Positions 30,909-34,602 of a DNA stretch of 64,000 bases are shown here, in pieces (position 1 is the stretch's first letter; each line of letters opens with the position of its first letter). The translations under genes and the position numbers were made by a program. This DNA is from Ralstonia sp. NFACC01 (GTDB taxonomy: Bacteria > Pseudomonadota > Gammaproteobacteria > Burkholderiales > Burkholderiaceae): positions 310,001 to 374,000 of the forward strand of contig NZ_FOWV01000001.1 of the NCBI RefSeq assembly GCF_900115545.1, read 5' to 3'. The notes beneath the pieces were generated by a model, which was given only the letters and a program-made list of their open reading frames with translations, ran no database searches and had not been told where the DNA came from.

Positions 30909-31586
30909 TTATCCTGCGATGAGCTGACGCTGCAACGCCGTGGTATTCGGGATGACAATTTCGCGGCCTTCCACGCGGATCAGTCCGTCGCGAATCAACT
31001 GACGCAGCGTGCGGGAAAGCGTGGCCGGTGCCAGCCCCAGCTTGGACGCGACCAGACTCTTGCTGCATGGAAATCGCGTGCGGTCAAACTTGCGCGGCAG
31101 CGAGAGCAGATACCCGATCAGCCGTTCATTGGCGCTTTGCAGGTTCACGGTTTCGATGTCGCACATCAACGTGTGCAGGCGCGCGGACAGCCCCGCGAGC
31201 ATCTGCCGCGCAAGGCGCGGATGCACGTGCAGTGCATCGTCGATGGCGCGCTTGTCGATCCAGACCAGCAGGCTGTCTTCCATGGCTTGCGCATCTGCCG
31301 CGTAAGGGCGGTTCAGGAACATGAAGGGCTCGCCAAAACACTCGCCCGGGCCAAAGAATTCGATGACCTTGCATTGGCCGTGCGCACCGGGCAACACAAG
31401 CTTGATCGCGCCGACCACCACAACATAGAAGCCATCGGCGCGATCGCCACGATGAAACGCGAAGTCGTGCCGCAACACGCGCACTGCATGGCTGTCGCGC
31501 GTGAGCACAGCCATGTCATCGTCGTCGAAGTCCAGGAACAGCGGGCTGTGCTTGAGCAGATCGCCCACATTGAGGGGGTCTTGCAT
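30909..31586 (-). CDS. Crp/Fnr-family transcription factor (Dnr-like)
   Basis: The 225-residue protein has a cyclic-nucleotide-type beta-roll sensor (about 15-130), a long dimer helix and a C-terminal winged helix with SKSLVASKLGLAPATLSRTL as helix-turn-helix. No N-terminal Fe-S cysteine cluster is present, so it is not an oxygen-sensing FNR proper; Dnr-type heme or cyclic-nucleotide sensing is possible. In the recognition helix the Glu that FNR uses (VETISR) is Ala (PATLSR). It lies 4 bases after nrdG and shares its transcript, which places a regulator inside the anaerobic dNTP operon. Its 3' end converges with the DGC gene at 20 bases. Confidence 0.88.
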   Translation of the reverse strand: MQDPLNVGDLLKHSPLFLDFDDDDMAVLTRDSHAVRVLRHDFAFHRGDRADGFYVVVVGAIKLVLPGAHGQCKVIEFFGPGECFGEPFMFLNRPYAADAQAMEDSLLVWIDKRAIDDALHVHPRLARQMLAGLSARLHTLMCDIETVNLQSANERLIGYLLSLPRKFDRTRFPCSKSLVASKLGLAPATLSRTLRQLIRDGLIRVEGREIVIPNTTALQRQLIAG

Positions 31587-31590
31587 GGTG

Positions 31591-32304
31591 TCACCGGCAA
31601 CAGAAAGAAGAAAAACAGGCGGCCAATGCGCGCTGGGTGCCCTTGCTGGGCAGCGTGATGGCAGGGGTTCCGGGGGCACTTCGGTAGGCTTGTAATGCGT
31701 AGTGTTTCACGCCGCGCTGGCTGAGGTTTTGCGCCAGCGCAAGAAGCTGCGGTTCGGGCAACCAGTCGGGGTGCCACGTGGTGCGGCACTCGAATGCGCC
31801 GCCGTTCTGCAGCAGAAGGTCCAGGGACGCATCGACCGGCGCGGCGCTGCCGCGGCGGCCCGTGAGTGCATCGTAGCGCGGTGCGCTGGTCTTGATGTCG
31901 AGCCCCACCCAGTCCATCAGCGGCAGTACGTCTGCCAGACGCGCCGGATAAATGCCGCCGGTGTGCATGCCAATCTTGTAGCCCAGGGCGCGCACGTCGC
32001 GCATCAGTTGCGGTAATTGCGGCTCACTCAGCGGTTCACCGCCGGAGAAGACAACCGCATCAAGCAGCCCTACGCGGCGCCGCAGAAACGCAAAGACGTC
32101 GTCCCAGTCCAGCGTGCGTGCTCGCGTTTGAAGGTGCGGGTTGTGGCAGTAATGACAGCGCCACGGGCAGCCGGCCACGAACACTACTGCCGCAAGCTGC
32201 CCCGGCCAGTCGACGCTGGAAAACGGTGCCAGGCCGCCGATGGCCGGCGGCGGGCAGTGCGGTGGCTCAGCGGGCGCGGTCTTCAACAAAGAAGCGGCGT
32301 TCAC
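31591..32304 (-). CDS. nrdG: Anaerobic ribonucleotide reductase activating protein
   Basis: NrdG is a radical-SAM enzyme that installs the glycyl radical on class III ribonucleotide reductase. The 237-residue protein has the cluster motif CPWRCHYCHNP (Cys46, Cys50, Cys53), then VVFSGGEPLSEPQL and the DIKTSAPRYDALTG stretch. The start is GTG at 32304, inside the last 38 bases of the small glycyl-radical ORF, so translation is coupled. The C-terminus ends in a Cys-rich FSSFCCR not usual for the family. Confidence 0.9.
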   Translation of the reverse strand: MNAASLLKTAPAEPPHCPPPAIGGLAPFSSVDWPGQLAAVVFVAGCPWRCHYCHNPHLQTRARTLDWDDVFAFLRRRVGLLDAVVFSGGEPLSEPQLPQLMRDVRALGYKIGMHTGGIYPARLADVLPLMDWVGLDIKTSAPRYDALTGRRGSAAPVDASLDLLLQNGGAFECRTTWHPDWLPEPQLLALAQNLSQRGVKHYALQAYRSAPGTPAITLPSKGTQRALAACFSSFCCR

Positions 32305-32443
32305 GGAATTCCCCTTGCTTGCCGATGTTGAACGAGCTGACGGGCCGGTGATAGCCCATCACGCGGGTCCAGACTTCGCAGCGCGTGCGCTGGGTGTCGT
32401 CGAGTGCAGCGGTGTGGTTGGTGGTGTGTGCAACGGTGTTCAT
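32267..32443 (-). CDS. Separate glycyl-radical tail of class III ribonucleotide reductase
   Basis: The 58-residue protein carries RCEVWTRVMGYHRPVSSFN followed by IGKQGEFRERRFF, which matches the C-terminal glycyl-radical block of NrdD; Gly30 would be the radical residue. The upstream large NrdD chain stops before this block. The ATG overlaps the NrdD stop as ATGA and has AAGGAG ten bases upstream, so it is made as a distinct chain by coupled translation, in the -1 frame relative to NrdD. The first 20 residues are a unique leader. It should dock in the NrdD barrel for activation by NrdG. Confidence 0.85.
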   Translation of the reverse strand: MNTVAHTTNHTAALDDTQRTRCEVWTRVMGYHRPVSSFNIGKQGEFRERRFFVEDRAR

Positions 32444-34503
32444 ACGGAGGCTCCTTCGTGATGGAGGTGGGTGGAAGAACCTGGAGTGCCCGCCGTTGTG
32501 CAGTTGCACTTGCCGCTAGGCTGCTGTGCCAGCAGTTCTGCATCGCATTTCGGACAGAACGCGTGATGGCCGGACAGGTAGCCGTGCTTCGGGCAGATTG
32601 AAAACGTCGGGGTGATGGTGATGTACGGCAGGCGGAAGTTCGCCAGCGCGCGCCGTACGAGTTCCTTGCACGCCTGCGGCGAGGAGATCGCTTCGTTCAT
32701 GTACAGGTGCAGCACGGTGCCGCCCGTGTACTTGCTCTGCAGCGCTTCCTGGCGCGCCAGTGCTTCGAACGGGTCGTCGGTGTAGCCGACGGGCAGCTGG
32801 CTGGAGTTGGTGTAGTACGGCTGTTCTGTCGTACCGGCCTGCAGGATGTCTGGCCAGCGCTTGCTGTCTTCGCGGGCGAAGCGGTAGGTCGTGCCCTCTG
32901 CGGGTGTGGCTTCGAGGTTGTACAGATGGCCGGTCGCCTCCTGGAATTCGGTCATGCGCTGGCGCACGTGGTCGAGCAGGCGCACCGCCATGGCGTGACC
33001 GAATGGCGTGGTGATGTCGTCGGCATCGTGGGTGAAGTTGCGCACCATTTCGTTGATGCCGTTCACGCCGAGCGTGCTGAAGTGGTTGCGCAGCGTGCCC
33101 AGGTAGCGCCGCGTGTACGGATACAGCCCATGGTCGATCAGCCGCTGGACGAACTTGCGTTTGACCTCCAGTACGTCGCGGCCGAGAGCGAGCAGCGTAT
33201 CAAGCCGCGCCAGCAGCGCCACCTCGTTGCCCGCGTAGAGATAACCCAATCGCGCACAGTTCACCGTCACCACCCCAATGGAGCCGGTCTGCTCAGCCGA
33301 GCCAAACAACCCGTTGCCGCGATTGAGCAGCTCGCGCAGGTCGAGCTGCAGGCGGCAGCACATCGAGCGCACCATGTGCGGCTCCAGATCGGAGTTGAGG
33401 AAGTTCTGGAAGTAAGGCAGCCCGTAGCGTGCCGTCATCTCGAACAGCAACGTGGTGTTGGGGTGCTCCCAATCGAAGTCCGGCGTGATGTTGTAGGTCG
33501 GAATCGGAAACGTGAACGCGCGGTCCTTTGCATCGCCCGCCATCATGACCTCGATGTACGCGCGGTTGATCATGTCCATCTCGGGCTGGAGATCGCCGTA
33601 GGTGAAGGGCATTTCTTCGCCGCCGATGTACGGAATCTGCTCACGCAGATCCGCCGGGCAAGTCCAGTCGAACGTGAGGTTGGTGAACGGCGTTTGCGTG
33701 CCCCAGCGGCTGGGCACGTTCAGGTTGTAGATCAGCTCCTGCATGGACTGCTTGACTGCCGCATACGACATCGCGTCGCGGCGGATGAACGGCGCCATGT
33801 ACGTATCGAATGAGCTGAACGCCTGCGCGCCGGCCCATTCGTTTTGCAGCGTGCCGAGAAAGTTGACGATCTGCCCGATGGCCGCGGACATATGCCGCGG
33901 TGGCGTCGCTTCCACCTTGCCCGGCACGCCGTTGAAGCCTTCCGTCAGCAACTGCCGCAACGACCAGCCTGCGCAGTAGCCCGACAGCATGTCGAGATCG
34001 TGGATGTGGATGTCGCCCTCGCGGTGCGCGGTGCCCGCCTCGGGGCTGTAGACATGCGAGAGCCAGTAGTTGGCGGTGACCTTGCCCGCCACGTTCAAAA
34101 TCAGGCCCCCGAGGCTGTACCCCTGATTGGCGTTGGCATTGACACGCCAGTCGCGCTGCTCGAGGTATTCGTCCATCGTGCTCTCGACATCGACCAGCGT
34201 GTGCTTGAGCGAACGCAGCCGGGCGTGCTGCTCTCGATAGACGATGTAGGCACGCGCGGTGCGCCAATAACCGGCGTCGACCAGCACCTCTTCCACGCAG
34301 TTCTGGATGATTTCGATACCGGGGCAGGGGAGCGGGGCGAGACGTTCGAGCACGCCCGTGGTCAGGCGCTGCGCTTCGGCGGTGTCGAATTCGCCAGTGG
34401 CCTGTCCGGCTGCCGCGATGGCTTGGCGGATATTTTGCGCGTCAAACGGGGCCAATGAACCGTCGCGCTTGGTGACTTGCCTGGTGACCTGTGTGCCCGT
34501 CAT
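32440..34503 (-). CDS. nrdD: Anaerobic ribonucleoside-triphosphate reductase, large chain without glycyl-radical tail
   Basis: NrdD makes dNTPs from NTPs without oxygen. The 687-residue chain has an N-terminal ATP-cone (TKRDGSLAPFDAQNIRQA), the ten-stranded barrel with SMCCRLQLDLRE and VTVNCARLGYLY cysteine loops and a C-terminal zinc-type site (CPKHGYL, then CPKC). The expected glycine-radical motif (RVxGY) after the zinc site is absent; the chain ends in a Gly/Ser/His-rich tail (THLHHEGASV). The start at 34503 has GGAG six bases upstream; an ATG at 34515 is possible. A perfect FNR/Dnr-type palindrome lies about 85-100 bases upstream. It heads the nrdD-tail-nrdG-regulator operon. Confidence 0.92.
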   Translation of the reverse strand: MTGTQVTRQVTKRDGSLAPFDAQNIRQAIAAAGQATGEFDTAEAQRLTTGVLERLAPLPCPGIEIIQNCVEEVLVDAGYWRTARAYIVYREQHARLRSLKHTLVDVESTMDEYLEQRDWRVNANANQGYSLGGLILNVAGKVTANYWLSHVYSPEAGTAHREGDIHIHDLDMLSGYCAGWSLRQLLTEGFNGVPGKVEATPPRHMSAAIGQIVNFLGTLQNEWAGAQAFSSFDTYMAPFIRRDAMSYAAVKQSMQELIYNLNVPSRWGTQTPFTNLTFDWTCPADLREQIPYIGGEEMPFTYGDLQPEMDMINRAYIEVMMAGDAKDRAFTFPIPTYNITPDFDWEHPNTTLLFEMTARYGLPYFQNFLNSDLEPHMVRSMCCRLQLDLRELLNRGNGLFGSAEQTGSIGVVTVNCARLGYLYAGNEVALLARLDTLLALGRDVLEVKRKFVQRLIDHGLYPYTRRYLGTLRNHFSTLGVNGINEMVRNFTHDADDITTPFGHAMAVRLLDHVRQRMTEFQEATGHLYNLEATPAEGTTYRFAREDSKRWPDILQAGTTEQPYYTNSSQLPVGYTDDPFEALARQEALQSKYTGGTVLHLYMNEAISSPQACKELVRRALANFRLPYITITPTFSICPKHGYLSGHHAFCPKCDAELLAQQPSGKCNCTTAGTPGSSTHLHHEGASV

Positions 34504-34588: not shown

Positions 34589-34602
34589 TTGACCCCGGTC
34601 AA
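34589..34602 (-). promoter_or_regulatory. FNR/Dnr-type operator upstream of nrdD
   Basis: TTGACCCCGGTCAA is a perfect TTGAC-N4-GTCAA palindrome, the half-site form used by Dnr/FNR proteins. It lies 74-87 bases upstream of the longer nrdD ATG (34515). The same region forms a CCCCGG/CCGGGG hairpin. Confidence 0.65.

What the first reader, a model, noticed from the sequence alone, without database searches (positions are those of the whole stretch)
32267..34503. Split class III ribonucleotide reductase: glycyl radical on a separate 58-residue chain
The 687-residue NrdD chain contains the ATP cone, barrel cysteines and zinc site but no RVxGY radical motif. The missing block (Arg-Val-Met-Gly-Tyr, then GKQGEFRERRFF) is a separate 58-codon ORF that starts in the NrdD stop (ATGA), in the -1 frame, with its own AAGGAG; nrdG overlaps its end. 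Coupled translation and overlap argue against a sequencing error. A detachable radical subunit recalls GrcA (YfiD), which replaces the damaged tail of pyruvate formate-lyase, but here it seems obligatory. Such small NrdD-annotated proteins may occur in other Burkholderiales; I do not know of a biochemical description. The large chain's His-rich extension and the small chain's 20-residue leader could be the docking parts.
Basis: partly seen in the sequence, partly recalled or inferred. Interest (0 to 1): 0.75.

Follow-up and report, generated by a model that had tools for sequence, protein, structure and literature searches.

The report
Anaerobic ribonucleotide reductase in two chains
In this bacterium, and in many of its relatives, the oxygen-free enzyme that makes DNA building blocks is encoded as two proteins, with the radical-bearing glycine on a detached chain of about 58 residues, and many phages carry that small chain alone, probably as a replaceable part for the host's enzyme.

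Summary
NrdD (687 aa) stops after its zinc ribbon. The glycyl-radical piece (RVMGY) is a separate 58-aa ORF that starts in the NrdD stop (ATGA). The two chains match consecutive parts of one NrdD profile, and the genome has no other NrdD and no Gly_radical (PF01228) match. This is no sequencing error. Of 80 named relatives 65 are split, 12 fused, 3 unresolved on their contig. Across 97 measured split loci the junction runs from a 41-nt overlap to a 298-nt gap in all three frames, with an SD-like site in 94, which rules out one conserved frameshift. On a quick tree the split looks old, with about two later re-fusions. A tethered AlphaFold model superposes on solved NrdDs over a range that includes the glycyl piece. 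RefSeq often names both chains already; papers seen here do not describe the arrangement. New here: the small chain also travels alone. Of 41 viral contigs of about 20 kb or more that carry it, 40 show no NrdD barrel, and six orphan copies lie in five bacterial genomes that also have the normal pair. Best reading: an obligatory detachable radical subunit, also used by phages on host NrdD. Nothing was tested at the bench.

The parts
32440..34503 (-). nrdD large chain (687 aa): ATP cone, barrel, MCCR motif, zinc ribbon (C637, H640, C650, C653); no glycyl-radical motif
   Evidence: PF03477 at 9-94 and PF13597 at 124-654 = profile 2-528/562; NF006126 1131 bits; invariant columns
32267..32443 (-). 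small glycyl-radical chain (58 aa plus stop), Gly30 in RVMGY
   Evidence: PF13597 profile 532-562/562, E 4.8e-8; TIGR02487 549-579/581; conserved in 33 aligned rows
32440..32443 (-). ATGA overlap: stop of the large chain and start of the small chain
   Evidence: sequence
32451..32456 (-). AAGGAG ribosome-binding site of the small chain, 7 nt before its ATG
   Evidence: sequence; 94 of 97 split loci, this one included, have an SD-like site
31591..32304 (-). nrdG, radical-SAM activase (GTG start assumed; overlaps the small gene by 38 nt)
   Evidence: TIGR02495 NrdG2, 187 bits; PF04055
34589..34602 (.). FNR/Dnr-type palindrome TTGACCCCGGTCAA, beginning 86 nt upstream of the nrdD ATG
   Evidence: only match in the 64 kb window, 0.07 expected; consensus recalled; a Dnr box in the P. 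aeruginosa nrdDG promoter is described in PMC5645315 (passage)

Best explanation
This is a class III (anaerobic) ribonucleotide reductase of the NrdDh4 kind whose catalytic enzyme is two polypeptides. The 687-residue chain supplies the ATP cone, the barrel with its cysteines and the zinc ribbon. The 58-residue chain supplies the glycyl loop. Proposed steps: both are translated from one anaerobically induced nrdD-small-nrdG mRNA (inferred); the small chain docks beside the zinc ribbon with its loop in the barrel (supported by a tethered model and by homology); NrdG removes a hydrogen from Gly30 (inferred from the family); the radical passes to a barrel cysteine and reduces NTPs (family knowledge). 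The detached chain can be exchanged, so a chain cut by oxygen costs about 58 residues instead of about 700 (inferred). The same feature makes it portable: phages, prophages and one probably conjugative element carry the chain without the barrel, most likely to charge or repair the host's NrdD during infection (inferred).
For: Two chains tile one NrdD profile. Sole NrdD in a genome rated 100% complete, with no PF01228 match. Junction variation and ribosome-binding sites in 97 split loci: gaps -41 to +298 nt, relative frames 0/1/2 in 25/37/35, 94 of 97 with an SD-like site against 189 of 1605 control ATGs. 29 of 30 class-sample genomes with a long NrdD match of at least 64% identity also match the small-chain profile (one of the 29, L020, is fused); the thirtieth NrdD runs off a contig end. 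NrdG lies in the held DNA of 111 of 119 loci. Large- and small-chain distances correlate (Mantel r 0.61 over 97 pairs, permutation maximum 0.27). Tree: 98 split, 16 fused, 3 changes. Tethered model pLDDT 86.6, pTM 0.82; superposes on Thermotoga NrdD 4coi (model 87-717 on chain 1-637) and 4u3e (97-730 on 13-647). Orphan copies; dN/dS outside the motif 0.26 in viral chains; 45 of 76 viral cores are at least 85% identical to a host core.
Against: No biochemistry. The model used a Roseateles relative (L059) with one stop read as Gly, so the chains were tethered, and the homologous alignment favours the canonical pose; the window's own pair was not co-folded. Viral relatives were found and compared through the conserved motif itself (patterns WTRVMGY or GKxxExxER; RVMGY.RP), so conservation of the motif there is partly by construction. 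No completeness of 90% or more is shown for any of the 41 viral records, so a barrel gene could lie in missing parts of some. Which host a free phage infects is unknown. One orphan host (G760) shows no nrdG in the 8 kb fetched, and one orphan (L237) has a chromosomal-type lipoprotein gene on its other side.
Confidence: 0.92

Rival explanations
1. The two frames are joined by programmed -1 frameshifting at the ATGA, giving one NrdD chain.
For: The small frame is open for 24 codons upstream of its ATG (stop-to-stop length 82), so a shift could fuse the frames in this genome.
Against: 76 of 97 split loci have a gap of 0-298 nt after a real stop, and the relative frame is 0, 1 or 2 in 25, 37 and 35; an SD-like site stands before the small ATG in 94 of 97; in one MAG the small chain is on another contig; most viral carriers examined show no NrdD.
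Confidence: 0.03
2. Assembly or base error splitting an ordinary NrdD.
For: None beyond the split itself.
Against: Same break point in about 100 loci from many assemblies (two rows, L022 and L119, are identical); separate start codon and ribosome-binding site; leader absent from the distant fused homologues L028, L037 and L038.
Confidence: 0.01
3. The orphan phage chains do something other than charge host NrdD: a decoy that blocks the host enzyme, a substrate for another activase, or cargo without function.
For: No activity known; no nrdG was found in the held flanks of the 80 viral loci with one NrdG query; some have a Cys-containing N-terminal extension (L147, L173, L191).
Against: The chain is under purifying selection also outside the motif (dN/dS 0.26), and the Asn, Gly, Lys and Glu after the motif are kept in 98-100% of 76 viral cores (the RVMGY.RP part is fixed by the search pattern and proves nothing). 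Four of the five genomes with orphan copies supply barrel, small chain and NrdG; in the fifth (G760) NrdG was not seen near by.
Confidence: 0.3
4. The small chain is a non-essential spare part and the large chain is active without it, using another glycine (for example Gly650 of C. necator NrdD).
For: A 1999 paper on C. necator H16, recalled and not held here, assigned the radical to Gly650 of a 76.2-kDa NrdD from a mutant phenotype.
Against: In H16 the large chain is 676 aa and 76,191 Da, and Gly650 lies in C646-P-T-H649-G650-Y651 of the zinc ribbon, not in RVxGY; a separate 66-aa gene downstream carries RVMGY. The mutant phenotype would fit a damaged zinc site (inference).
Confidence: 0.04

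Closest known systems
NrdD, class III ribonucleotide reductase, subclass NrdDh4 (RNRdb2 naming; MCCR motif, PMC4493059)
   Same: ATP cone, barrel, MCCR, zinc ribbon, RVMGY loop, adjacent NrdG
   Different: Glycyl loop on its own chain with its own start; the fused close relatives in the sample seem to be secondary
GrcA / YfiD and phage T4 Y06I, spare parts of pyruvate formate-lyase (PMC8683613, passages read)
   Same: Small autonomous glycyl-radical protein; a phage-encoded version exists; can in principle replace an oxygen-cut tail
   Different: Belongs to the NrdD family, not PF01228; the partner enzyme has no glycine of its own, so the part should be obligatory; about 58 aa (YfiD is 127). 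That paper says spare parts were demonstrated only for PFL
Split class II RNR NrdJa/NrdJb of Pseudomonas (PMC4009431 and PMC9669993, passages)
   Same: An RNR in two consecutive ORFs
   Different: Class II, B12 enzyme; [quoted passage not shown]
PHROG 4132 (phage family of unknown function)
   Same: All 10 small chains scanned (the window's and 9 viral ones) match its C-terminal part
   Different: Annotated as unknown; the present data identify that part as an NrdD glycyl-radical piece

Membership tests
Class III RNR (NrdD) | NRDD barrel profile (PF13597) at the curated cut-off | tested here: met
   Large chain 573 bits, profile 2-528; small chain 32.6 bits, 532-562; cut-off 26.2
Class III RNR (NrdD) | Glycyl-radical RVxGY motif on the catalytic chain | tested here: not met
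   Absent from the 687-aa chain; present on the separate 58-aa chain. Met only for the pair, hence 'two-chain variant'
Class III RNR (NrdD) | NrdG radical-SAM activase | tested here: met
   Adjacent gene, TIGR02495, 187 bits, cut-off 131
Class III RNR (NrdD) | NTP reduction and glycyl radical by EPR | not testable with these tools
   No bench data for this clade seen in the passages read
NrdDh4 | MCCR motif in place of SCCR | tested here: met
   M381-C382-C383-R384 invariant in 31 rows, distant fused relatives included; definition from PMC4493059 (passages)
GrcA / YfiD autonomous glycyl radical cofactor | Gly_radical domain PF01228 | tested here: not met
   Small chain matches only PF13597 in Pfam; PF01228 finds nothing in the own genome while it rings in E. 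coli
GrcA / YfiD autonomous glycyl radical cofactor | Partner is a complete glycyl-radical enzyme with its own glycine | tested here: not met
   Large chain has no RVxGY; only NrdD in the genome
Gene joined by programmed frameshift | Short overlap with a fixed frame relation conserved among relatives | tested here: not met
   Gap -41 to +298 nt, all three frames, 97 loci

The most novel reading that the evidence does not exclude
Phages, prophages and a probably conjugative element carry the detached radical chain of class III RNR on its own, and use it to load a fresh glycyl radical onto the host's NrdD barrel (or to replace the host's chain after oxygen has cut it), taking over anaerobic DNA-precursor synthesis with a gene of about 50 codons. 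PHROG 4132 would include this family, the first spare-part system known outside pyruvate formate-lyase.
Probability: 0.6. Interest if true: 0.87.

Novelty: new variant of a known kind. Interest (0 to 1): 0.74.

Why it matters
A glycyl-radical enzyme built as an obligatory two-chain complex separates the radical carrier from the catalyst, so radical loading, oxygen damage and exchange can each be tested with purified parts. It suggests that a published radical-site assignment in C. necator (recalled) should be revisited, tells annotators that an NrdD without RVxGY need not be a pseudogene, and offers a function for a phage family of unknown function. If phages do load host NrdD with their own chain, that answers the question raised in PMC8683613 whether spare parts exist for glycyl-radical enzymes other than pyruvate formate-lyase.

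Tried and rejected
Frameshift and sequencing error: rejected on junction data. Docking by the His-rich tail and the leader: not supported, both vary between relatives. GrcA membership: rejected. INPHARED phage genomes: P0002 gave no match at E 0.01; two viral small chains at E up to 1 gave weak hits only, to NrdD genes and to ANMV-1 (8 and 3 records). Small-chain matches not counted as small chains: four weak ones (G210, G248, G261, G344; E 1e-4 to 5e-4), three in distant fused NrdDs (G013, G054, G328) and G147, which has only a fragment of each chain; six of the 88 matching genomes are weak (E 1e-5 to 7e-4).

Rows left out of the tree: E. coli-type NrdDs L039-L056; truncated L027, L029, L030 and L097; L138-L141 (no NrdD, or repeats of loci already in). 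L082 was kept without a state (contig ends 138 nt after the start of its NrdD stop codon). L112 was scored split because its small chain is on another contig. L076, counted as split, has a run of N near its junction. The tree is a quick one (LG+G4, SH-aLRT only); two long branches meet near its root, and well-supported branches force only 2 changes, so 'split first, re-fused later' is likely but not proven.

Four of the 80 viral small-chain loci (L159, L185, L200, L201) lack the exact [TS]RVMGY motif and dropped out. My first dN/dS (0.16 host, 0.19 viral) included motif codons that the search pattern had fixed; without them it is 0.22 and 0.26. In one search, 11 of 80 viral large-chain loci showed no glycyl piece by my pattern; at least one (L325) is fused with a variant motif, so that class is an upper bound. 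The second structure job was not used.

Papers: passages read by term search in PMC4390871, PMC9531940, PMC3019208, PMC9669993, PMC11528403, PMC9176816, PMC4493059 (plus its section 13), PMC4860495, PMC11226230, PMC5645315, PMC12662201, PMC4009431, PMC8365446, PMC8683613 and PMC12386605. None of those passages describes a split NrdD or an orphan NrdD glycyl chain. Ten full-text searches showed none in their listings; phrase search 101 returned 0 papers. The library holds open-licence papers only, so a subscription paper may have described it.
Full report
OBSERVATION. On the minus strand nrdD runs 34503..32440 (687 aa), the small ORF 32443..32267 (58 aa) and nrdG 32304..31591. The nrdD stop and the small start share ATGA, and AAGGAG stands 7 nt before that ATG. 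The large chain holds the ATP cone, the NRDD barrel, MCCR and a zinc ribbon with C637, H640, C650 and C653, then ends without RVxGY. The small chain has R27-V-M-G30-Y31. Both chains tile a single NrdD profile: TIGR02487 2-549 and 549-579 of 581; PF13597 2-528 and 532-562 of 562. The genome (5.37 Mb, rated 100% complete) has one NrdD, no PF01228 match and one class I/II-type large subunit. So the small chain is its only recognised glycyl-radical site for class III.

IT IS A CONSERVED ARRANGEMENT. In 369 genomes of the class, 30 have a long NrdD match at 64% identity or more; 29 of these 30 also match the small-chain profile, one of them inside a fused NrdD (L020), and the thirtieth (G337) has its NrdD cut by a contig end. 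Among 80 named loci from the 84,980-species collection (the best 80 of at least 585, hence biased to close relatives) 65 are split, 12 fused and 3 unresolved on their contig. Of those three, L112's genome has its small chain on another contig, L097's genome has it after an NrdD piece on another contig, and L082's contig ends too soon. Split members include Chitinimonas, Roseateles, Duganella, Acidovorax, Hydrogenophaga, Pseudomonas, Stutzerimonas, Microbulbifer and MAGs labelled Omnitrophota, Gracilibacteria and Uhrbacteria (bin labels may err). Fused members include Actinomyces, Cellulomonas and Maricaulis. In plasmid records 16 of the 28 places that match the small chain are named 'nrdD: anaerobic ribonucleoside-triphosphate reductase', as in C. 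necator H16, where the large gene is 'ribonucleoside triphosphate reductase'. NrdG was found in the held DNA of 111 of 119 bacterial loci.

NOT A FRAMESHIFT. In 97 measurable split loci, this one included, the gap runs from -41 to +298 nt (median 31). 21 overlap, 7 by exactly ATGA as here; the relative frame is 0, 1 or 2 in 25, 37 and 35 loci; an SD-like site precedes the start in 94, against 189 of 1605 internal ATG triplets. The start was chosen to favour an SD site where several ATGs existed, which inflates the 94 somewhat. The small chains are under purifying selection: median dN/dS 0.16 over 32 core codons (869 non-independent pairs with dS 0.1-1.5) and 0.22 when the nine motif codons, fixed by my search pattern, are left out. 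Large- and small-chain distances correlate (Mantel r 0.61; largest of 999 permutations 0.27). That shows co-inheritance and does not by itself show contact.

HISTORY. A quick tree of 115 large chains without the glycyl part (98 split, 16 fused, 1 unknown) needs 3 changes, against about 15 with shuffled labels. Rooted on three fused relatives, the early branches are split and most fused rows sit inside. In one fused Maricaulis row the linker still reads like a small-chain leader (L130: LAEEDRQPCEVW). I read this as one old split and about two re-fusions; well-supported branches alone force only 2 changes. A genus in the window's own order (G764, G804, G873, G901, G930) is also fused and was not in the tree, so re-fusion may be commoner.

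A PUBLISHED SITE TO REVISIT. I recall, without having the paper, that the C. necator H16 NrdD was described in 1999 as 76.2 kDa with the glycyl radical at Gly650. In the pHG1 record the large chain (676 aa) computes to 76,191 Da, and Gly650 is in CPTHGYLAG of the zinc ribbon; the RVMGY chain is a separate 66-aa gene after a 142-nt gap. If the recollection is right, that assignment was made without the small chain.

THE CHAIN TRAVELS ALONE. A scan of 2.9 million viral contigs with the small-chain alignment found 207 that encode a relative; I examined the best 80. The scan keys on the motif (WTRVMGY or GKxxExxER), so it cannot see strongly altered chains. 79 of 80 show no NrdD in the held flanks (up to 5 kb a side), and none shows NrdG there with one NrdG query. 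Of the 80 I gave 41, all those of 19.8 kb or more (19.9-108 kb), to a whole-record NRDD search: 40 match only within profile 529-562, the glycyl piece, and one (L165's record) also has the barrel. No completeness estimate of 90% or more is shown for any record. I scanned 20 neighbouring proteins from 12 loci: in 10 of the 12 at least one matches a PHROG with a named phage function (portal, terminase, clamp loader, head-tail adaptor, tail fibre, helicase, replication initiator, endolysin, HNH endonuclease, head maturation protease); L153 matches only families of unknown function and L197 none. All ten small chains scanned, nine of them viral, match PHROG 4132, 'unknown function'. As a control, the same collection searched with the large chain gave 179 relatives; of the best 80, 51 are fused, 18 have a separate glycyl piece (15 within 150 nt of the stop) and 11 none by my pattern. 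So phages carry fused NrdD, split NrdD, and the chain alone.

In bacterial genomes: of 300 genomes of the window's own order (not named by the tool), 88 match the small-chain profile, six of them weakly, and 5 have more than one match. In four of these five (G760, G787, G920, G931) the nrdD-plus-small pair is present and the extra copies (L229, L231, L235, L237, L238) have no nrdD or nrdG match within the roughly 8 kb fetched; in the fifth (G850) the second copy lies by an NrdD remnant. A sixth orphan is in G267 (L138, L239), whose own pair is L017. NrdG lies beside the normal pair in G787, G920, G931 and G267 but was not seen near it in G760. Contexts of the orphans: L229 helicase and PAPS reductase; L231 RecJ-like nuclease and a GH19 lysin-like gene; L235 tail-fibre assembly, phage lysozyme and integrase; L237 Phage_tail_S on one side and an NlpA lipoprotein on the other; L238 an AcaB regulator, which I recall from conjugative elements; L239 an NrdA-like gene, plus ORFs that read to me like SSB and RecT. 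The cores of these six are 88-100% identical to a host core. ANMV-1, an archaeal virus, has a 144-aa gene product named anaerobic ribonucleoside triphosphate reductase, ending in SRIVGYLRPVNQWNKGK... after a Cys-containing part.

MECHANISM. Shown: the parts, their conservation, separate translation signals, co-inheritance, canonical fold when tethered, mobility. Inferred: radical on Gly30, loading by NrdG, obligatory complex, exchange after oxygen damage, and use of phage copies on host NrdD. Anaerobic control is suggested by TTGACCCCGGTCAA at 34589-34602, the window's only match (0.07 expected).

VERDICT. It is a new variant of a known kind. The boldest reading still open is that phages use the detached radical chain to run the host's NrdD.

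Noticed in passing
34589-34602 and 30909-31679: Perfect FNR/Dnr-like palindrome upstream of nrdD, and a CRP/FNR-like regulator ORF after nrdG (the regulator by my reading, no family search).
   Followed up: partly
L227:34-4353 (MT835493.1, faecal phage): An nrdG-like ORF, then a fused NrdD whose C-terminus continues into a glutaredoxin-like stretch (TKTCPNCKM), then a thioredoxin-reductase-like ORF; all by reading.
   Followed up: no
L226:3526-3960 (ANMV-1 virus, AJP62049.1): Archaeal virus gene for 144 aa: Cys-containing N-terminal part plus glycyl-radical end, no barrel in that gene; another orphan, apparently from a different lineage. The rest of the record was not searched for a barrel.
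   Followed up: partly
L147, L148, L161, L173, L179, L191, L194, L202: Viral small chains with a Cys-containing N-terminal extension before the glycyl core, perhaps replacing part of the host zinc ribbon.
   Followed up: no
small chain Cys22 (window 32378-32380): A cysteine five residues before the Arg of RVMGY is invariant in 33 aligned rows and present in 98% of 68 host and 96% of 76 viral cores; fused L020, L037 and L038 have Thr there. Role unknown.
   Followed up: partly
L112 and L222 (Holosporaceae MAG): The large chain lies on one contig without a small chain or nrdG match, while the small chain and an nrdG match lie together on another.
   Followed up: partly
L239:8718-11573 (G267, same contig as the orphan small chain): NrdA-like class I RNR large subunit (phrog_84) close to the orphan glycyl chain.
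   Followed up: no
L248, L291, L309: Viral NrdD barrels whose nearest separate glycyl piece lies 1.4-2.6 kb away, in L309 upstream.
   Followed up: no
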